The translations under genes were made by a program, and so were the position numbers. The notes beneath the pieces were generated by a model. That model searched no databases. It worked only from the letters and a program-made list of their open reading frames with translations, and was not told where the DNA came from. From assembly GCA_002839375.1 (NCBI GenBank), contig PGXY01000010.1, positions 62,001-126,000 of the forward strand: a stretch of DNA of 64,000 nt, in the 5' to 3' direction. Within the stretch, counting starts at the first letter, position 1, and each line of letters begins with the position of its first letter. Shown here in pieces: positions 46,391 through 55,640 of the stretch. The DNA is from Spirochaetae bacterium HGW-Spirochaetae-1 (GTDB lineage: Bacteria > Spirochaetota > UBA4802 > UBA5550).

Positions 46391-46753
46391 TTATTGTTTT
46401 TCTTCCATAATTATAGTTCCATTGAATACAGATCCGCTCTCAATGGACAGATCGGGGGCGATCATATCGCAGCCGCTTCTGCTCTTTTTAAAGAGTTCCA
46501 CTTTCTGGGAGGCCCGTATTTTGCCATTGACGATACCGCTCACGGAAACAATCCTGGCGTTTATATCGGCACTGACCGTTGCTTCTCTTCCCACGATGAG
46601 GTGCCCGTCCGTCTCGATTTTTCCCTCAAAGATTCCCTTGATTTTCAGGGAATTCTTGAATTTCAGGCTGCCCCGGAAATGAATGTCATCGGCAATAACC
46701 GTATCTATTTTATTTTCGTCCTCTACTATCTCTTTTTCTTTTATATCAGCCAT
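46391..46753 (-). CDS. Bactofilin
   Basis: 120 residues. The right-handed beta-helix repeat is evident: IADDIHFRGSLKFKNSLKIKG, IFEGKIETDGHLIVGREATVSADI, VSGIVNGKIRASQKVELFK. Bactofilins polymerise without nucleotide into filaments that shape cells or locate wall enzymes. The ATG at 46753 has GGAG six bases upstream, and the promoter at 46800-46828 places the transcript start below the longer possible start at 46828, confirming the shorter form. Confidence 0.9.
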   Translation of the reverse strand: MADIKEKEIVEDENKIDTVIADDIHFRGSLKFKNSLKIKGIFEGKIETDGHLIVGREATVSADINARIVSVSGIVNGKIRASQKVELFKKSRSGCDMIAPDLSIESGSVFNGTIIMEEKQ

Positions 46754-46799
46754 TTCTTTCTCCGTCAGATTCTTTCCCGGATATAACCGGTTTCCGTAT

Positions 46800-46828
46800 A
46801 CAATAGAATTGTTGTCGCCATATGTCAA
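46800..46828 (-). promoter_or_regulatory. Sigma70 promoter of bactofilin and barrel genes
   Basis: Minus strand TTGACA (46828-46823), 17 bases, TATTGT (46805-46800). Ideal spacing, about 40 bases from the bactofilin ATG. Confidence 0.7.
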
Positions 46829-46940: not shown

Positions 46941-47276
46941 GTGGATGATATTTTAAAAACAGCCAATGAACTGGGAATCATGATTCAGGATACTGAAGTG
47001 TATAAAAACTTCCAGAGGATGCTCCTGAAGCTTGATAAAAATGAAGATGCCGTGCGTACGCTGGAATCATACACTTCATATGCCGAAGAACTGCAGGTGC
47101 GCCGGAAGAATGGCGACATTATAGAAACATATGAAGAGGAGAGGATGAACGAATTGAAAAAAGAGGTCCGGGATTCCGAATTGCTGATGCAGTTCATCGG
47201 GACCCGCGATGCCTATATGGGCCTGCTTCTGCAGATCCATACGGCTATCGAACAGGGCGAAGACGGGAACGAGTGA
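46941..47276 (+). CDS. YlbF/YmcA-family protein
   Basis: 111 residues, GTG start with GGAGGGGAG upstream. Two long helices with the family pattern ANELGIMIQDTEVYKNFQRM, then LKKEVRDSELLMQFI. In Bacillus, YlbF and YmcA form a complex with YaaT that controls RNase Y and development; other members are uncharacterised. It is a lone gene between divergent and convergent neighbours. Confidence 0.75.
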   Translation: MDDILKTANELGIMIQDTEVYKNFQRMLLKLDKNEDAVRTLESYTSYAEELQVRRKNGDIIETYEEERMNELKKEVRDSELLMQFIGTRDAYMGLLLQIHTAIEQGEDGNE

Positions 47277-47289
47277 AATTTCCGTGGGA

Positions 47290-47937
47290 TTATTTTCCGT
47301 CGGGTGCAGTCCAGTCGATCTTTTCGTTGATAACTCCTGCCAGGGATTCCACTCCCGCATCATCGTGGTAATGCATGCCGGGATTCCGGTCAACGGTGAT
47401 TTTCCCTTTTCTGTCTCTGGTGAATCGGCGTGCCGTATGGTGGGAAGCCGAAACGGTTTCCCCGTTCCCGGTCAGGGAGTCGGCGAGATCAATTGATCCG
47501 TTGCAGACGCAGAAATAGGTATTGGCCGTATCCTCAACTTTTGCGCAGTATGATGTGCCGCGGATGCTGGCTGTAATCGTCGGGCTTTGAATAAGATATC
47601 GGGCCTGCCGGGTAAATGCCTTGCGGGTCACTCCGCTGAACCAGCCTTTCTCCAGCAGCAATATGTTTTTTTCCTGTGATATATTGAAAACCAGCGATGA
47701 ATTGGCCCCCAGGCGGAAGATATTTTTATCCCCCACAAGAATAGTACAGAAGGATTTATCTCCCGTCTCCACACGGTCTCCGAATATTACGGGAATGCCG
47801 CTTCCCATGACTGGAATTTTATTTACGGTGACCCTGCCGGAATAGGCATTGATCAACGCCTCAATCCTGCTCCTTTTTGTGCAGGCAAAAGAAAAAGAAA
47901 CCAATAAGAGCAAAAGAAAAATCGATATTTTTTTCAT
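47290..47937 (-). CDS. FecR-domain lipoprotein
   Basis: 215 residues. MKKISIFLLLLLVSFSFAC is a lipoprotein signal with Cys19. The body is a FecR domain: GDRVETGDKSFCTILVGDKNIFRLGANSSLVF, then IQSPTITASIRGTSYCAKV, the usual TPxAxxxxRGT block. Free FecR domains of this kind are common in spirochaetes and may bind surface polymers rather than regulate iron. The promoter at 48000-48027 starts transcription below the longer frame's start, so 47937 is the true start (AGGAGA nine bases upstream). Confidence 0.85.
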   Translation of the reverse strand: MKKISIFLLLLLVSFSFACTKRSRIEALINAYSGRVTVNKIPVMGSGIPVIFGDRVETGDKSFCTILVGDKNIFRLGANSSLVFNISQEKNILLLEKGWFSGVTRKAFTRQARYLIQSPTITASIRGTSYCAKVEDTANTYFCVCNGSIDLADSLTGNGETVSASHHTARRFTRDRKGKITVDRNPGMHYHDDAGVESLAGVINEKIDWTAPDGK

Positions 47938-47999
47938 AACTAAAACTCTCCTGATGGACCTAATAGTATAATTGCTTCGGTTAATCCTCACATACGTAT

Positions 48000-48027
48000 A
48001 GAATAGCATTTTTATTAGAAATGTCAA
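48000..48027 (-). promoter_or_regulatory. Sigma70 promoter of the FecR gene
   Basis: Minus strand TTGACA (48027-48022), 16 bases, TATTCT (48005-48000). Confidence 0.7.
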
Positions 48028-48103
48028 GTATGACTGGAAGGTATATCATATGCCATTTTAAAAACTATTAACGCATTGAGGGAGATAATTTTGAGTTATT
48101 ATC

Positions 48104-48132
48104 TTGACTTTTTATTTTGCGTGAGGTATAAA
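48104..48132 (+). promoter_or_regulatory. Sigma70 promoter of the SPFH/DUF4178/polyamine operon
   Basis: TTGACT (48104-48109), 17 bases, TATAAA (48127-48132). One of the best promoters in the window. The first start codon follows after a leader of about 115 bases. Confidence 0.78.
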
Positions 48133-48252
48133 ATAACAGTCTGTTTGACCGGCGGATTGTACGTGCTGTACCTTCACTAAAACTTTACAGAGATGCAGGA
48201 CCAAATGCATTTACGATTGATACAACTATCATAAATAAGGGAGAAAACAGAC

Positions 48253-48780
48253 ATGAAACCCGATCTGGACAAGCTCAAGGAGAGAATTTCGGCCAACAGG
48301 GACCTGGTGGACAGGATCACCCGTCAGCTGCCGGGATACGAAGGCTATGTAGAAAAAACTGAAATGTACAATGCCGACAGGATTGTACGGGAATACAGCG
48401 CAGGCCAGTTGAAAAAGCTTAAAGATGAGCTTGAAAGTCATTCAGCCGAAATGTTTCGTGAGAAGAGGACGGCAATTCTGGCTGACCTGGAGCCGCTGAC
48501 ACTGCTCATTGAGAAAGTCTATAAAAAATGTCTTCACGCCGATTATGGCTCCACGGCGTCGCTCAGCAGGATCAAGCTTGGCCCCGATGACATGAACAGG
48601 CTCCTGGAGTACGACTGGCGGCTCGTGGACCGCCTGGCCGCAGTTGGCGGAATTGCCGGTTCCCTGGAATCGCTCGCCGATGATGAACTGAAAAAGAAAT
48701 ACGGAGAAATTAAAAATATGATCAGGGATTTTGACAAGGCCCTTGATGACCGCAAAGACGTAATAATGGAGGTAATATAA
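48253..48780 (+). CDS. Helical protein of unknown function, first gene of the SPFH/DUF4178 operon
   Basis: 175 residues, soluble, nearly all helix. The N-terminal block LPGYEGYVEKTEMYNADRIVRE (residues 25-46) looks like a family signature; I recall similar PGYxGY...ADxxvR segments in uncharacterised proteins beside SPFH genes, but cannot verify this. The rest is charged coiled helix. AAATAAGGGAG precedes the ATG. Its stop codon directly abuts the SPFH ATG, so the two are probably made together. It could be a partner of the SPFH protein; it has no amphipathic N-terminal helix typical of PspA. Confidence 0.65.
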   Translation: MKPDLDKLKERISANRDLVDRITRQLPGYEGYVEKTEMYNADRIVREYSAGQLKKLKDELESHSAEMFREKRTAILADLEPLTLLIEKVYKKCLHADYGSTASLSRIKLGPDDMNRLLEYDWRLVDRLAAVGGIAGSLESLADDELKKKYGEIKNMIRDFDKALDDRKDVIMEVI

Positions 48781-49908
48781 ATGGCGTTGATAGATGTTGT
48801 TGAGTGGAAGAATAAAAAGGATGAAGTCATTTTCCGTTTCCAGGAAGGGGCCATATCCCTGGGCGCCCAGCTCATTGTCATGGAGAACCAGGAGGCAATT
48901 CTTTTCAAGGAAGGGCAAGCCCTGGATTCCTTCGGGCCGGGACGACACACGCTAAAGACCGGAAATATCCCCATCCTGGAGAAGCTTATAAATCTGCCCT
49001 TTGGCGGAAAGACCCCTTTCCCGGCCGAGATATACTTCATCAATAAAACCGAAATTCCTAACCTGAAGTGGGGAACAAAGCAGGCAATGCAGATCATGGA
49101 CCGGAAATTCAATGTGCCGATTCCGGTCCGGGCCTTCGGCAATTATTCCATAAGGATCAGGGATATCAAGCCGTTCCTGATCATGGCTATCGGTACCTGG
49201 CAGGCCTTCAACACCGACGCTATCGGCACGGCCCTGCGGGATCAGATCATCCTGCCCAAGCTGCAGGACCTCATCGCCGAGTTTATGATAAAGCAGAACG
49301 TGATGATATTTGACATCGTGGCATATTATGATGAAATCGGAACAGCGGGAAAAGCGAAGATCGTCGAGGATTTTAACAGCTTCGGCGTGGAGCTGGTCCG
49401 CTTCGCCTTGGAATCCATCAATATCCCCGACGATGACGAGAATGTAATACGGCTGAAAAAGGCCTTGTCTGACAAGGCCGAGATCAATATTATGGGTGAA
49501 GATTACAAGACGAAACGTACCTTCGATACCATGGAAAAAGCCGCTTCCAATGAGGGAATGGCCGGAGGCATGATGGGAGCGGGAATGGGTTTCGGCATGG
49601 GAAACCAGATGGGACAGATGATGAACCAGACCATGGGAGGCGCACAGCAGACCCAGGGACAGCAGGGACAGGTGGCATGTCCGGCCTGCAATACACCCAA
49701 TACAGCCGGTGCCAAATTCTGTGCATCGTGCGGCAAACCCATGGTAGTTGAAAAGGCCTGCCCGGCATGCAAGGCGAAGATGCCGGCCGATGCCAAGTTC
49801 TGTCCCTCGTGCGGCGCCAATACGATGGAAGCGGCATGCGTGAAGTGCGGGGCGAAGCTCAAGCCCGGGGCGAAATTCTGTCCCGAATGCGGATCAAAAC
49901 AGGAATAG
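48781..49908 (+). CDS. SPFH-domain protein with three C-terminal zinc ribbons
   Basis: 375 residues. Residues 1-235 form an SPFH (band 7) domain of the YdjI / 'virion core protein' type: VMENQEAILFKEGQALDSFGPGRHTLKTGNIP and GNYSIRIRDIKPFL. There is no membrane helix; the protein probably binds membrane through the SPFH domain. A Gly/Met/Gln-rich linker (about 260-295) leads to three zinc ribbons, each with paired CxxC motifs (CPACN..CASCG, CPACK..CPSCG, CVKCG..CPECG). Known relatives assemble into large membrane-bound oligomers; the Zn ribbons may recruit the neighbouring zinc-ribbon proteins. Confidence 0.88.
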   Translation: MALIDVVEWKNKKDEVIFRFQEGAISLGAQLIVMENQEAILFKEGQALDSFGPGRHTLKTGNIPILEKLINLPFGGKTPFPAEIYFINKTEIPNLKWGTKQAMQIMDRKFNVPIPVRAFGNYSIRIRDIKPFLIMAIGTWQAFNTDAIGTALRDQIILPKLQDLIAEFMIKQNVMIFDIVAYYDEIGTAGKAKIVEDFNSFGVELVRFALESINIPDDDENVIRLKKALSDKAEINIMGEDYKTKRTFDTMEKAASNEGMAGGMMGAGMGFGMGNQMGQMMNQTMGGAQQTQGQQGQVACPACNTPNTAGAKFCASCGKPMVVEKACPACKAKMPADAKFCPSCGANTMEAACVKCGAKLKPGAKFCPECGSKQE

Positions 49909-49918
49909 GAGTACAGGC

Positions 49919-50524
49919 ATGGCATCACTCAATTGCACGTCATGCGGGGCTCCCGTGGAAATCAACAACAGGTTCAGCAAGGTCCTGGTATGCAACTACT
50001 GCGGCACTCACCTGAAGATAGAAGGAGAAGGGAGTCTCAGCGAATCGGGCAAATTCCCGAAACTGGCTGATTTCCCTTCGATCCTTTCCGTAGGATGCAG
50101 CGGAACCATCCTGGGAAAGCCCTTTTCTGCCCTGGGCAGGATGCAGTACAAGGGTGACTGGGGCCGCTATAACGAATGGTTTATAGAACACGACGGCGAA
50201 ACGGCCTGGCTCACCGAGGATGAAGGAGCCTTCACTCTTTTCAGCGAAATGTACGATGCCGCCGATATCCCCGATGTGGCTACCCTGCGTGCCGGGCAGA
50301 ATATCAACGTGGCCGGTAAAAAGATCATGGTGAAGGAAATCGGCAAGGCCTTTGTAGAAGGCGGTGAGGGTGAGCTCTATTACTATGTTGAACCGGGAAC
50401 GGAGGTTACCTTTATCGACGGTGTGGGAGAAGGGAAAAAGGTATCCATAGAATATTCTGAAAATGAAGTGGAGCTTTTCACCGGAAGGCCGTTGTTGAAA
50501 AGGGATATCGTTGTTGGTGCGTGA
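49919..50524 (+). CDS. DUF4178 protein with N-terminal zinc ribbon, soluble
   Basis: 201 residues. Cys6, Cys9, Cys25 and Cys28 make a zinc ribbon (CTSCG, CNYCG). A single DUF4178 domain follows, with GTILGKPFSALGRMQYKG and the YNEWFIEHDGETAWLTEDEG block that marks the family. DUF4178 proteins occur with spermidine synthase and DUF350 genes in many bacteria; their function is unknown. AGGAGT lies just upstream of the ATG, ten bases after the SPFH gene. Confidence 0.85.
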   Translation: MASLNCTSCGAPVEINNRFSKVLVCNYCGTHLKIEGEGSLSESGKFPKLADFPSILSVGCSGTILGKPFSALGRMQYKGDWGRYNEWFIEHDGETAWLTEDEGAFTLFSEMYDAADIPDVATLRAGQNINVAGKKIMVKEIGKAFVEGGEGELYYYVEPGTEVTFIDGVGEGKKVSIEYSENEVELFTGRPLLKRDIVVGA

Positions 50525-50593
50525 TGTACCGGCTGCGGCTATCGGAATGTTTTTAGCTGTTATGCTGAATATGAATAGGGATAGAGGTTGATC

Positions 50594-51991
50594 ATGGGCG
50601 ATGAACAGGAAAAACTGAAAGCCTTGAAATGCCATGATTGCGGCGGAGATATAGTTAAAAGCTATCGCGTCGAAGGCGATGATGAGGACGAGGAGCAGAT
50701 ACCCATCGCCAGGTGTCTTTCCTGCGGCAGGGAATACGATCAGCACACCCAGGAATATTACGCATATTTTGCCGATAGCTTCATCACCGACAAGGACAAG
50801 TCGGTTTTTAAACTGGGCCTCAAGGGGACACTGAACGGCGTGGAATACGAGATAATCGGCCGACTCAGGTACCAGGATGAGGATGAGTATGAACTGGATA
50901 CCTGGGACGAGTGGCTAGCCATCACTGCCGAGGGGGCCTACCATTATTTTGTTGAAGAAGACGGCGACGTCCACTCCTATGAGGAATATATCCCCGAAAC
51001 GATCGATCTCGAGAGCAGCGGCAGCAGCATCGAGTTTGAAGGAAAAAAAATATCGAAGAGCGAGGCCTATATCGGGAGGATCGTTTACGCCGAGGGTGAA
51101 CTGCCCTGGAGTCCGGAAATCGGCGAGGCCGTCACTCTTTACGATTTTAAAAAAGACGGCTGCAATTATACCATAGAACAATCCGATGAAGAGGTTTCGA
51201 TTACCAAGGGTGAACGCATTCCCTATAAACAGATAATCGATGCCTTTGGCGGCGATCAGTATAAAGAAATGTATGACGCCACCATAAAGAAAAGAAAAGA
51301 ATTCACGTGGAAATCCCGGGTGTATCTGGCAGTCATGCTGGTGTCCCTGGTGATGGCTCTTTACAAGTGCTCATCTGGCAGCGCCATAGAGAATATAATG
51401 GCCATGACAAAAGTGATTTCCACCAATGTCTACATGCAGGATGAGGGCGGGGCAAATTATTTCAGCCAGGTATTGTACGGCCCCTTTGAGATCCCCGAAC
51501 CCGACAGGCTCTATGAATTCAGCGTATCCATCGACGAGGCGGTGCAGCCCCTCAGCCAGGAATGGGAATCCTTCAGGCTCATGCTTATACAGGAAGACCG
51601 GCTCAACCAGGTCACGGATAATATGACCGATTTTAATGAACTGAAGGAGATGCTCACGGAGATAGACGCTCAGAAGGAGCCCGTGGAATCCTATGTCGTA
51701 AACGGGGATTTCTGGGACGAGGAAGGATACGACAGCGATGGCCGCTGGCATGAAAACGACCTGTCCGCATCGTCGAGCTTTGTTCTCGATGAGGCAGGGA
51801 GGTATTTTGCCTATCTGGAGCTTTACAGCAAGAATGCCCGGAATGTCGATTCGGTAAAGATCGCCCTGAGCAGCGCCGGGAGTGTTCGGTATTTTATAAT
51901 TCTTTTTGTGATATTTTTTATTCTTTTCATGCTGAACAGGTCGAAGGCCGCCACTTACAATGCGCTTCCTTTCGAGGTGGGAAGTGATTGA
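50594..51991 (+). CDS. DUF4178 protein with zinc ribbon, two membrane helices and an outer domain
   Basis: 465 residues. Zinc ribbon Cys13/16/41/44 with an acidic loop between the pairs. A DUF4178 domain (70-205) repeats the W-D-E-W...Y-H-Y-F-V-E-E-D-G pattern. Helices near 243-258 and 432-450 flank a domain of about 170 residues that should lie outside the inner membrane (FSQVLYGPFEIPEPDRLYEFSV; SSFVLDEAGRYFAYLELYS), beta-rich. It could sense something in the periplasm and signal to the cytoplasmic zinc-ribbon/DUF4178 part. ATG 50594 is favoured over TTG 50588. Confidence 0.82.
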   Translation: MGDEQEKLKALKCHDCGGDIVKSYRVEGDDEDEEQIPIARCLSCGREYDQHTQEYYAYFADSFITDKDKSVFKLGLKGTLNGVEYEIIGRLRYQDEDEYELDTWDEWLAITAEGAYHYFVEEDGDVHSYEEYIPETIDLESSGSSIEFEGKKISKSEAYIGRIVYAEGELPWSPEIGEAVTLYDFKKDGCNYTIEQSDEEVSITKGERIPYKQIIDAFGGDQYKEMYDATIKKRKEFTWKSRVYLAVMLVSLVMALYKCSSGSAIENIMAMTKVISTNVYMQDEGGANYFSQVLYGPFEIPEPDRLYEFSVSIDEAVQPLSQEWESFRLMLIQEDRLNQVTDNMTDFNELKEMLTEIDAQKEPVESYVVNGDFWDEEGYDSDGRWHENDLSASSSFVLDEAGRYFAYLELYSKNARNVDSVKIALSSAGSVRYFIILFVIFFILFMLNRSKAATYNALPFEVGSD

Positions 51992-52042
51992 TATTTGATT
52001 ATTTGTTAAACCGGTTATATAGTCCGGAAAGGGGTAGGGGTG

Positions 52043-52237
52043 ATGATAAAAAGTGTAGCTTTGGCATTGGTGCTCTTGTCGGGGGGATTTGCCCTGTCGC
52101 ATTTTTATGTGGGATATCCCAGGGCAGGAAAATACTATATTTCCAAACACCGTGAGCAGCGCAAATCCCTGCGGATGGGGAGCGGCTACTACGGAACGCG
52201 CATGGGTTCCGGAAGTTTTCGCGGCGGCGGGAAGTAG
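52043..52237 (+). CDS. Tiny secreted or membrane protein with an RGGGK tail
   Basis: 64 residues. A hydrophobic N terminus (MIKSVALALVLLSGGFALSHFYVG) is followed by a basic stretch and a Gly/Ser/Tyr tail ending FRGGGK. In related operons a DUF4247 protein often occupies this spot and I recall similar Gly-rich Arg-Lys tails in it; this is only a weak resemblance. GGGGTAGGGG precedes the start; GTG 52040 is an alternative. Real gene status is supported by position and spacing. Confidence 0.55.
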   Translation: MIKSVALALVLLSGGFALSHFYVGYPRAGKYYISKHREQRKSLRMGSGYYGTRMGSGSFRGGGK

Positions 52238-52297
52238 TTGGTCCACCGGCAAGAATTTTTTGCAGAGCAATCATATTAAATCAGGAGGATAGTATTA

Positions 52298-52576
52298 ATG
52301 GAATGGGGACAATATCTTTACGGCATTCTCGATACGGTGGTGTATTCTTTTATCGGGCTTATAATAATGGGGATCGGCTTTCTGCTTATAACACTTTTCT
52401 CTCCCTTTTCAATCAAGAAGGAAATTGAGGATGATCAGAATATCGCCCTGGGGCTTATTATCGGTTCCGTCATCATTGGGATTTCCATTATCATTGCGTC
52501 CGTTATTGCAACGCCGTCGGGCTCCAACCCGGTGAAAAAGGCGCCGGCGCAGGTTGAAATGAAGACCGATAAGTAG
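52298..52576 (+). CDS. DUF350 small membrane protein
   Basis: 92 residues with two membrane helices (VVYSFIGLIIMGIGFLLITLF; IALGLIIGSVIIGISIIIASVIA), the DUF350/YjfL pattern. The polar C terminus (SNPVKKAPAQVEMKTDK) is probably cytoplasmic. In Escherichia coli, DUF350 YjfL is in an operon with a PspA paralogue and a glutathionylspermidine-synthase-like gene; here it precedes a spermidine-synthase-like gene. AGGAGG precedes the ATG and its stop shares one base with the next start. Confidence 0.88.
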   Translation: MEWGQYLYGILDTVVYSFIGLIIMGIGFLLITLFSPFSIKKEIEDDQNIALGLIIGSVIIGISIIIASVIATPSGSNPVKKAPAQVEMKTDK

Positions 52577-54102
52577 TGAAAGACAATTTTTCCCTTTCAC
52601 AGCAGAGGATCCTTCTTTTCTCGATCTTTGTCCTTTCTCTCTGCGGCATAACGTATGAACTGGTTCTGGGTTCACTGGCGACTTATCTGCTGGGGAACCC
52701 GGTGCAGCAGTATTCCATCACCATCGGTGTCTTTCTCAGTTCCATGGGGCTGGGTTCCTGGCTTTCACGGTACGTGCTGAAGAATATCCTGAGGAACTTC
52801 ATATGGATAGAGGTGACCCTGGGACTCGTGGGCGGCGTCTCGGTCATCATACTCAATTACCTGTTCAGCTTTTCGCCGTCCTTTTATCTTCTCCATGTCT
52901 TTCTGCTTTCTTTCATCGGGATGCTCGTGGGCCTGGAGATTCCACTGCTGACGAGGATTCTCCGCGGCTACGGCTCTCTTAAGGATGTTCTTTCCAACGT
53001 GCTCACCCTGGACTATATGGGCGGCCTTGCCGGATCGCTGCTTTTCCCCCTGGTTCTCTTTCCCTTCCTGGGGAGGATCATGACGTCCCTGGTCATCGGT
53101 ATAGCCAATGCGGCGGTGGCCGTGATTATTGTCACGCGGATTAAATATTCCGGGAAACGGCGCATCGATTATATTTATCCTCTCGTTGTCGTTGGTATCC
53201 TGACGGTGCTGGTGCTTCAGTCGGGTGTCGTGACCGATATTCTGGAGAAAAGGCTTTACTATGATGATATCGTATTCTCACGGAGGTCCACGTACCAGGA
53301 GATAGTGCTGACCCGGAACGGCGACGATTTCAGGCTTTACCTCGACGGATCGCTGCAGTTTTCAACATACGATGAATACCGTTATCACGAGATGCTGGTA
53401 TATCCTCCCCTGGCGTTCAACGGAAAGGGCGATAAACAGGTTCTGGTCATGGGTGGCGGTGACGGCCTGGCGTTGCGGGAGCTCGTCAAGCAGGACGATG
53501 TACGCTCCGTGACCCTGGTGGAACTGGACCCCATGATGCTCGACCTGGCCCGGAACAATTCAAGCCTGAAAAGAATTAACGGGAATTCCCTGGTCCACCC
53601 AAAGGTGAATGTCGTGGCGGGCGATGCCTATGATTTTCTTGTGAAAAGCGGACGGACCTTTGATATTATAATTGCTGATTTCCCCGATCCCCATGATGAG
53701 ACCATTTCAAAGCTCTATACGGTACAGTTTTTCAAGCTGGTGAAGCGTTCCATGGCCCCGGGGGCCATTTTCGTCTCCCAGTCCACGTCGCCTCTCTTTG
53801 CCCGCGAGGCCTTCTGGTGCATTCACAACACTATGAAAAAGGTCTTTCCCCATGTAGTTCCCTATCACGTTTTTGTTCCCACCTTCGGTGACTGGGGGTA
53901 TAACATGGCTTCCTTCTCGGAAATAAAACCGAAAGATGCCGATGTTTCGCGGCAGGGACTCCGGTTTTTTACGAGGGAGACGTTTGTCCAGTCACAGCAC
54001 TTTCCACCCGACTGTGGAGAAATATCAACGGAAATTAATACCTTTAACCGGCCGGTCCTCTATACCTATTATATCAAGGGCTGGAAGAACGTTGACTATT
54101 GA
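52576..54102 (+). CDS. Membrane-embedded spermidine-synthase-like aminopropyltransferase
   Basis: 508 residues from GTG. Residues 1-220 contain about seven membrane helices; 225-460 are a spermidine-synthase domain. Conserved parts: LDGSLQFSTYDEYRYHEMLVYPPL with His271-Glu272, GGGDGLALRE (293-302), VTLVELDP and ADFPDP (Asp368, Asp371), matching the putrescine and decarboxy-SAM sites. The enzyme should transfer an aminopropyl group to putrescine or a related acceptor, perhaps at the membrane face. Its membrane part is not present in classical SpeE and may move the amine or anchor it. Confidence 0.88.
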   Translation: MKDNFSLSQQRILLFSIFVLSLCGITYELVLGSLATYLLGNPVQQYSITIGVFLSSMGLGSWLSRYVLKNILRNFIWIEVTLGLVGGVSVIILNYLFSFSPSFYLLHVFLLSFIGMLVGLEIPLLTRILRGYGSLKDVLSNVLTLDYMGGLAGSLLFPLVLFPFLGRIMTSLVIGIANAAVAVIIVTRIKYSGKRRIDYIYPLVVVGILTVLVLQSGVVTDILEKRLYYDDIVFSRRSTYQEIVLTRNGDDFRLYLDGSLQFSTYDEYRYHEMLVYPPLAFNGKGDKQVLVMGGGDGLALRELVKQDDVRSVTLVELDPMMLDLARNNSSLKRINGNSLVHPKVNVVAGDAYDFLVKSGRTFDIIIADFPDPHDETISKLYTVQFFKLVKRSMAPGAIFVSQSTSPLFAREAFWCIHNTMKKVFPHVVPYHVFVPTFGDWGYNMASFSEIKPKDADVSRQGLRFFTRETFVQSQHFPPDCGEISTEINTFNRPVLYTYYIKGWKNVDY

Positions 54103-54113
54103 TTGATGGGATG

Positions 54114-54524
54114 ATGAAGATACAGGGAATCAGTCATATTACTTTCATCGTCCGGGATCTGGAGAGATCGGCACATCTTTTCACTTATCTTTTCGGCGCC
54201 AGGGAAGTTTATTCCAGCGGTGACAGGTATCATTCTCTCACACGGGAAAAATTTCTGATGATAGGTGAACTATGGATAGCCCTGATGGAAGGTGATCCCG
54301 TGGCGGAGAAGACGTATAATCATATTGCATTCCGGGTTTCCAGCGATGATCTTCCCCGCTATCATGATATGGTTGAAGAATTGAAACTTGAAATCATGCA
54401 GTCCCGTCCCAGAGTACCCGGCGAGGGGGAGTCGCTGTATTTTTATGACTACGACAATCATCTGTTTGAACTGCATGCGGGCGATTGTAACGAGAGGGTG
54501 GAAGCCTATGTCCAGCCTGGATAA
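54114..54524 (+). CDS. fosX: FosX-type fosfomycin hydrolase
   Basis: 136 residues, the size of FosX. The vicinal oxygen chelate metal ligands His8, His70 and Glu119 are in ISHITF, YNHIAF and HLFELH, and Glu45 in TREKF matches the catalytic base that activates water in FosX. Long stretches agree with the Listeria type: VYSSGD, LWIALMEGD, RPRVPGEG, YFYDYDNHLFELHAG. It probably opens the fosfomycin epoxide with Mn2+. It starts 11 bases after the aminopropyltransferase; ATG 54111 is an alternative start. Confidence 0.85.
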   Translation: MKIQGISHITFIVRDLERSAHLFTYLFGAREVYSSGDRYHSLTREKFLMIGELWIALMEGDPVAEKTYNHIAFRVSSDDLPRYHDMVEELKLEIMQSRPRVPGEGESLYFYDYDNHLFELHAGDCNERVEAYVQPG

Positions 54525-54572
54525 AACAAATTACTGCCGTTTCAGGAATGGGAAAGCTTCCCGCAGGTTATC

Positions 54573-55640
54573 ATGCTCACGCATATCGGCATAGAGATTA
54601 CATTCTTCGGTTTCGGCCTCTGCCTCCTTCGGGCTTTTGAGTCGATACTGTCTTCAAAGAAAATTATTTCCATGCCGGTCCTGTTTTATGTTTTCAACAG
54701 TTTCATCCTTCTCGGTACCGGGCTTGTCGCTCTTGGTCTGCCGCTGGAATATCCATCGTCAATATTTCTCTTTCCCTCTTCGCTGCTCATCATTGGGCCG
54801 CTGAATCTTTTCTACTACCACTACCTGCTGTATCCGGGGCAGCCAGTTCTCTACCGGACGCACCTGCACCTGGTTCCCTTTTTCCTGTGCCTGTTCGTCG
54901 AGATATTTTTTCAGGTCCAGCCCTTTGCTTTTAAACATGAATTGCTCACGGCATTTTTCAACGGGCGGGACGGACATTTTCTGATTGTGCCTTTTGCGTT
55001 CATTTCTCTCCATGTGCTGGTATACATGTTAATTATTCTGAAGGTATTCCTCCTCGACACGGGTTTTAAAAAAAACCAGAGAGAATTTCATTTTATCGGG
55101 TCTATCGCGCTTGTTGTTTTTCTCATAGTCGCCATGTTGTTTTTCGGCTTTGTTTTTGATATTCCCGGTCTGTTTATCGGCGGCAGTGTGCTGAATGTAT
55201 GCGTACATATCTACATCTACCTGGGATTGCGTATAGTTCCGCAGTTTTTCAATTCTCTGAAAATGGAGATCAGAAAAAAACGCTATGAGAAATCAATGCT
55301 CAGTGGCATCGACACTGCCGCAATCCATGAAGGCCTGGACAATCTTATGAGGGAGGATAAGCTTTTTCTCGATTGCGAGATTTCCCTGTCTTCCGTGGCC
55401 CGAAGGTTATCCCTGACACCGCACCAGTTATCGGAATTCCTCAATGAACATAAGGGTTCCGGTTTTCATGACTGCATCAACAGGTACCGCATTGAAGAGG
55501 CTCAGAAACTTCTCATGGAGCACAGGGAAGCCAGCGTCACCTCGATCTGTTACCGGGTCGGATTCAATTCCAAATCATCCTTTAACACGGCATTTAAAAA
55601 AATAACCGGTAAAACCCCAACGGAATTCCGCCAGCGCTGA
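54573..55640 (+). CDS. Membrane-anchored AraC-family regulator
   Basis: 355 residues. Residues 1-215 have about seven hydrophobic helices; 255-355 are an AraC double helix-turn-helix (LSSVARRLSLTPHQLSEFLNEHKG and VTSICYRVGFNSKSSFNTAFKKITGKTP). The membrane part should sense a signal in the membrane or periplasm and position the DNA-binding domain inside. It stands between fosX and the metabolic cluster and could control either. An inverted repeat GTTC-N10-GAAC lies just after it at 55660-55677. Confidence 0.88.
   Translation: MLTHIGIEITFFGFGLCLLRAFESILSSKKIISMPVLFYVFNSFILLGTGLVALGLPLEYPSSIFLFPSSLLIIGPLNLFYYHYLLYPGQPVLYRTHLHLVPFFLCLFVEIFFQVQPFAFKHELLTAFFNGRDGHFLIVPFAFISLHVLVYMLIILKVFLLDTGFKKNQREFHFIGSIALVVFLIVAMLFFGFVFDIPGLFIGGSVLNVCVHIYIYLGLRIVPQFFNSLKMEIRKKRYEKSMLSGIDTAAIHEGLDNLMREDKLFLDCEISLSSVARRLSLTPHQLSEFLNEHKGSGFHDCINRYRIEEAQKLLMEHREASVTSICYRVGFNSKSSFNTAFKKITGKTPTEFRQR

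What the first reader, a model, noticed from the sequence alone, without database searches (positions are those of the whole stretch)
48253..48780. Unknown helical protein abutting an SPFH gene
The stop codon touches the SPFH start codon, implying fixed stoichiometry. The LPGYEGY...ADRIVRE block looks conserved but belongs to no family I can name. It may replace PspA in this operon type.
Basis: partly seen in the sequence, partly recalled or inferred. Interest (0 to 1): 0.6.

Follow-up and report, generated by a model that had tools for sequence, protein, structure and literature searches.

The report
Helical partner gene of SPFH scaffold
A small soluble helical protein of unknown function is always encoded directly before a membrane-scaffold (SPFH) gene in one branch of spirochaete bacteria, in the slot that the membrane-repair protein PspA fills in related gene clusters, although it is not itself a PspA.

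Summary
The ORF is real. X (48253-48780, 175 aa) ends directly before an SPFH gene (Band_7_1 plus zinc ribbons). All 15 order-level members, window included (homologues 33-45% identical to it), sit directly upstream of SPFH, mostly in the operon X-SPFH-DUF4178-DUF4178-small membrane protein-DUF350-SpeE. A distant leptospiral-type homologue is also X-SPFH, unlinked to that operon. The PGY..GY..E...AD..VR block is conserved. X's conserved C-terminal '[ML]EV' codons carry the Shine-Dalgarno sequence of SPFH in 15/15, so translation is probably coupled. X is not PspA/ESCRT-III: no sequence match, profile probability 0.6%, predicted short-helix bundle. But two genomes of the phylum have CesT/Tir-PspA in the same kind of operon, so the X-SPFH pair plausibly takes the dyad's place. 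A paralogue, X2, lives away from SPFH. Best reading: dedicated adaptor of the SPFH scaffold in a PSP-related envelope/polyamine operon; function is inferred only. By-catch: all 37 such operons examined encode a membrane or lipoprotein ending in a C-terminal lysine.

The parts
48253..48780 (+). X: 175-aa soluble helical protein, relative of NF047596 (LIMLP_15305 family)
   Evidence: no TM-like segment
48328..48393 (+). conserved block L26-E47 (LPGYEGYVEKTEMYNADRIVRE) of X
   Evidence: P27, E34, A41, D42, R46 invariant in 16 sequences
48767..48773 (+). TGGAGGT, Shine-Dalgarno sequence of SPFH inside the last codons of X (M-E-V)
   Evidence: present in 15/15 homologues; Glu codon GAG in all 14 counted, about 10^-4.3 by chance if sites were independent
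48781..49908 (+). SPFH protein, Band_7_1 plus C-terminal zinc ribbons (YdjI type)
   Evidence: PF13421 E=1.9e-46, DZR E=1.1e-22
49919..50524 (+). zinc-ribbon-like DUF4178 protein
   Evidence: PF13785 E=2.4e-10
50588..51991 (+). DUF4178 protein with membrane segments
   Evidence: PF13785 E=3.7e-13
52043..52237 (+). small 64-aa membrane protein, Gly-rich tail ending in GGGK
   Evidence: TM-like segment
52298..52576 (+). DUF350 membrane protein
   Evidence: PF03994 E=5.2e-14
52576..54102 (+). SpeE-type polyamine aminopropyltransferase with N-terminal membrane segments
   Evidence: NF002956 573 bits, over cut-off 472

Best explanation
X is a dedicated cytosolic adaptor or co-scaffold of the SPFH protein encoded right behind it. 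SHOWN: constant adjacency, an SPFH ribosome-binding site inside X's tail, conservation of the ADR.VR block, no TM segment, a predicted compact helical bundle, and an operon of the PSP-related DUF4178-DUF350-SpeE type. INFERRED: X is made first and translation is coupled to SPFH; X binds the SPFH oligomer at the inner face of the membrane, and the pair serves as the membrane-scaffold module of an envelope-stress/polyamine operon, the role that CesT/Tir-PspA has in sister operons. X would then be a positional analogue of part of that dyad, not a PspA homologue.
For: X lies directly upstream of SPFH in 15/15 order-level members and in one distant genome where the pair is separate from the DUF4178-SpeE genes, so the pair is the unit. 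SPFH's Shine-Dalgarno sequence is inside X's tail in 15/15 and lies in the spacer where the gap is 19 nt. CesT_Tir_1-PspA stands in the corresponding operon in G131 and G075, as published for other bacteria (PMC11237479). The B. subtilis SPFH protein YdjI is required to localise PspA to the membrane (PMC8581546). None of the 16 X genomes has PspA above cut-off.
Against: No interaction or expression data. Two closely related SPFH operons lack X, as do Novosphingobium and Gemmatirosa. X2 paralogues sit with NifX-like and MinD-like genes without SPFH, so SPFH binding is not a property of the whole family. The embedded ribosome-binding site alone could keep the two genes together.
Confidence: 0.5

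Rival explanations
1. X is a functional analogue of PspA/ESCRT-III: it polymerises on or remodels the membrane itself after recruitment by SPFH, without common descent.
For: Same operon position as CesT/Tir-PspA; no PspA in X genomes; SPFH-PspA coupling is established in B. subtilis (PMC8581546).
Against: Predicted bundle of helices of at most 32 residues, not a long hairpin; no similarity to PspA; SPFH-only versions work without any such protein.
Confidence: 0.15
2. X is a chaperone or regulator of SPFH assembly (a CesT/Tir-like job by a different fold): it keeps SPFH soluble or controls its synthesis through translational coupling.
For: Small soluble protein made just before its partner; the partner-first order equals CesT/Tir before PspA; embedded ribosome-binding site.
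Against: No CesT/Tir match; X2 without SPFH; two SPFH operons do without it.
Confidence: 0.2
3. X is a general helical adaptor or ligand sensor whose target differs by context (SPFH for X, NifX/MinD-like Fe-S or metal systems for X2); proximity to SPFH is one of several uses.
For: X and X2 are homologous (profile probability 96.8%, E 2.7e-10) but live in different operons; three genomes carry both.
Against: The SPFH-linked form never departs from SPFH in the genomes seen.
Confidence: 0.15

Closest known systems
NCBIfam NF047596 (LIMLP_15305 family, Leptospira)
   Same: Full-length profile match, same length (175), E=4.4e-17; a leptospiral-type relative (L050, 181 bits) is also X-SPFH
   Different: 62.5 bits against a cut-off of 210; the family has no known function; the relative's SPFH carries SHOCT instead of zinc ribbons and is not in the SpeE operon
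CesT/Tir-PspA operon with DUF4178, DUF350 and SpeE (PSP 'second group', PMC11237479)
   Same: DUF4178, DUF350 and membrane-fused SpeE present together with a small membrane protein; a scaffold module belongs to the operon
   Different: the CesT/Tir-PspA dyad is absent and X-SPFH stands in its place
Bacillus subtilis ydjFGHI (PspA-YdjG-YdjH-YdjI; PMC8581546, PMC11237479)
   Same: SPFH protein with C-terminal zinc ribbons in an operon with a soluble helical partner
   Different: there the partner is PspA with membrane proteins YdjG/H; X is unrelated to PspA by sequence
PspA/IM30/ESCRT-III
   Same: helical, soluble, SPFH-linked position
   Different: no sequence or profile similarity; short-helix bundle predicted

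Membership tests
PspA/ESCRT-III (PF04012) | sequence or profile similarity | tested here: not met
   no Pfam hit; hhalign probability 0.6% against 30 spirochaetal PspAs and no hmmsearch hit
PspA/ESCRT-III (PF04012) | long helical hairpin core | tested here: not met
   AlphaFold2 model has helices of 21, 32, 23, 26 and 31 residues; mean pLDDT 77, so moderate confidence only
PspA/ESCRT-III (PF04012) | fold match to solved members | tested here: inconclusive
   no Foldseek match at E<=0.001; best VIA-align row Z 13.8, 139 residues, 3.1 A, to Chlamydia IncA, near the range of unrelated helical bundles
PspA/ESCRT-III (PF04012) | membrane binding and polymerisation | not testable with these tools
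   needs biochemistry
NF047596 LIMLP_15305 family | score over curated cut-off (210 bits) | tested here: not met
   62.5 bits; no genome of 296 passes it
NF047596 LIMLP_15305 family | full-length homology | tested here: met
   residues 7-171 on profile 6-173 of 175
CesT/Tir chaperone | Pfam CesT/Tir match | tested here: not met
   none for X at E<=1; true CesT_Tir_1 proteins of G131 and G075 score E<1e-44
PSP-type DUF4178-DUF350-SpeE operon | DUF4178, DUF350 and membrane-fused SpeE together | tested here: met
PSP-type DUF4178-DUF350-SpeE operon | CesT/Tir-PspA dyad | tested here: not met
   X-SPFH instead; no PspA above cut-off in the genome

The most novel reading that the evidence does not exclude
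X-SPFH is one of several interchangeable membrane-scaffold front ends (X-SPFH, SPFH alone, CesT/Tir-PspA, none) of a protein-modification system in which the membrane-fused SpeE transfers aminopropyl groups to the invariant C-terminal lysine of the operon's small membrane protein, rather than making free spermidine.
Probability: 0.15. Interest if true: 0.85.

Novelty: new variant of a known kind. Interest (0 to 1): 0.42.

Why it matters
SPFH proteins recruit partners to bacterial membranes, and PspA is the best-known one. A conserved, unrelated partner in the same kind of operon would show that the membrane-scaffold module of PSP-type polyamine operons is exchangeable, and would give a first functional handle on an unannotated family that reaches Leptospira-like bacteria. 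It also shows how a conserved protein terminus can really be the next gene's ribosome-binding site.

Tried and rejected
X as PspA: rejected by sequence, profile and predicted helix lengths. Weak Pfam, PHROG and PADLOC hits of X (Cep57, DUF6279, PbeC, E 0.003 or worse) are coiled-coil noise. Fold search gave no specific relative: the top rows are generic four-helix bundles (IncA, SPECT1, Rx-CC, V-ATPase rotor, designed proteins). Plasmid and viral collections gave no X homologue. The genome-contig scan found only Spirochaetota, but it used one narrow peptide pattern, so absence elsewhere is not shown. Mutual exclusion of X and PspA: 0 observed against about 2.5 expected genomes, not significant and not corrected for kinship. 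Whether the X-less SPFH operons (G071, G158) lost X or never had it could not be decided (p-AU 0.22; the tree is spoilt by one row translated in a wrong frame). The literature on LIMLP_15305 holds only a flanking-gene mention. No Rfam element in 47000-55000.

Full report
Observation. The ORF at 48253-48780 (+) is 175 aa; its TAA is followed without a gap by the ATG of an SPFH gene. The SPFH protein matches Band_7_1 (E 1.9e-46) and carries C-terminal zinc ribbons, i.e. the YdjI type. Downstream follow two DUF4178 proteins, a small membrane protein, DUF350 and a membrane-fused polyamine aminopropyltransferase. No TM-like stretch is seen in X.

It is a gene. A search of 296 genomes of the phylum with the protein found full-length homologues at 33-45% identity in 14 other genomes of the same order, plus weak matches elsewhere. 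Record titles of the matching contigs name uncultured Spirochaetota. Pfam has no family for it. NCBIfam NF047596, the Leptospira LIMLP_15305 family, matches full length at E 4.4e-17 but far below its cut-off (62.5 against 210 bits); the leptospiral-type genome G004 scores 181 bits. The one paper that mentions LIMLP_15305 only lists it as a gene flanking an RNA (PMC7567364).

Neighbourhood. In 15 of 15 order-level members (the window included) X is directly upstream of SPFH, and where the contig allows, the order X-SPFH-DUF4178-DUF4178-(small)-DUF350-SpeE is kept. In G004 the pair X-SPFH stands apart from its DUF4178-SpeE genes, which lie on another contig, and SPFH has a SHOCT domain instead of zinc ribbons. 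So the pair X-SPFH is the constant unit. The reverse does not hold: in G071 and G158 an SPFH 60-61% identical to the window's heads the DUF4178 genes with no X before it, and in Novosphingobium and Gemmatirosa the same kind of operon starts with SPFH alone. A tree of SPFH cannot decide between loss and ancestral absence (p-AU 0.22).

Junction. In all 15 order-level members the last sense codons of X spell TGGAGGT, a near-perfect Shine-Dalgarno sequence 8 nt before the SPFH start. Glu is GAG in every one of the 14 counted although GAG makes up 30-71% of Glu codons elsewhere in the two genes (chance about 10^-4.3 if independent), and the preceding codon always ends in G although it may be ATG, CTG or TTG. 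In G004, with a 19-nt spacer, the purine-rich GAGGAG lies in the spacer and X lacks the 'EV' tail. I infer translational coupling; the conserved C-terminal '[ML]EV' is then a nucleic-acid signal, not necessarily a protein feature. This does not by itself prove a fixed stoichiometry.

PspA question. Two genomes of the phylum, G131 (same order) and G075, have CesT_Tir_1-PspA in an operon with DUF4178, a DUF350-like gene (by inspection) and SpeE, the arrangement reported by the PSP survey as its second group (PMC11237479). X-SPFH thus occupies the place of that dyad. None of the 16 X genomes has PspA above the Pfam cut-off, against 47 of 296 in the sample; with about 2.5 expected this is not significant. 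X is not related to PspA: hhalign probability 0.6% and no hmmsearch hit. An AlphaFold2 model from 24 sequences (mean pLDDT 77, pTM 0.70) gives helices 5-25, 38-69, 73-95, 111-136 and 143-173, a short-helix bundle rather than a long hairpin; Foldseek gives nothing at E<=0.001 and the best VIA-align rows are generic bundles, IncA first (Z 13.8, 139 residues, 3.1 A).

A second subfamily. A profile search of the order found X2, about 155-180 aa, in nine genomes; its profile matches X at 96.8% probability, E 2.7e-10 over 141 columns, sharing G31, R46, D121 and R167. X2 lies near NifX-like (PF02579), DUF5320, metallo-beta-lactamase-fold and MinD/4Fe-4S ATPase genes in most genomes, and next to UPF0047 and an AAA ATPase in G210, never next to SPFH in the stretches read. 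G042, G117 and G127 carry both forms.

Mechanism. Shown: adjacency, coupling signal, conservation, predicted bundle, operon type. Inferred: X binds SPFH and acts as adaptor or co-scaffold at the membrane. The closest experiment is B. subtilis YdjI, an SPFH protein needed to localise PspA to the membrane with YdjG/H (PMC8581546). Confidence 0.5; rivals are a CesT-like chaperone role, convergence on PspA function, and a context-dependent adaptor.

By-catch. In all 37 DUF4178/SpeE operons examined, across Spirochaetota, Gemmatimonadota and Pseudomonadota and whatever scaffold they carry, one membrane-anchored or lipoprotein product ends in GK or HK. Among 188 background ORFs 18 end in K and 3 in GK/HK. 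Caveat: candidates were picked by eye among short ORFs in the right interval, and in L212 by a pattern that required a terminal K. A C-terminal lysine as substrate of the aminopropyltransferase is a testable guess; the PSP survey already raised aminopropylation of other substrates in general terms. The genome also has an AdoMet decarboxylase elsewhere, so ordinary spermidine synthesis remains possible.

Novelty. The operon kind is known; the X-SPFH front end and the X/X2 family have no described function in the sources available here. I rate it a new variant of a known kind.

Noticed in passing
window 52043-52237; L036-L049, L207-L231: Small membrane or lipoprotein in every DUF4178/SpeE operon examined (37/37) ends in GK or HK after a Gly/Ser-rich tail, though otherwise hardly alike; background 18/188 ORFs end in K. 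Possible substrate of the SpeE-type aminopropyltransferase.
   Followed up: partly
L051:4898-5410, L169-L176: X2, a divergent paralogue of X, in clusters with NifX-like, DUF5320, metallo-beta-lactamase and MinD/4Fe-4S ATPase genes of unknown function.
   Followed up: partly
L053:1450-1686 (G117): Fragment resembling the N-terminal half of the genome's own X at a contig edge; looks like a decayed duplicate.
   Followed up: no
L133:8176-9063 (G141): A different 295-aa helical-looking protein overlaps the start of another SPFH gene by 4 nt; possibly an independent SPFH partner.
   Followed up: no
L050:8114-9118 (G004): SPFH partner of the leptospiral-type X carries a C-terminal SHOCT domain (PF09851 E 4e-08) in place of zinc ribbons.
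   Followed up: partly
window 46391-46828 (-) and 47290-48027 (-): Bactofilin (PF04519) and a FecR-domain protein lie just upstream on the other strand.
   Followed up: no
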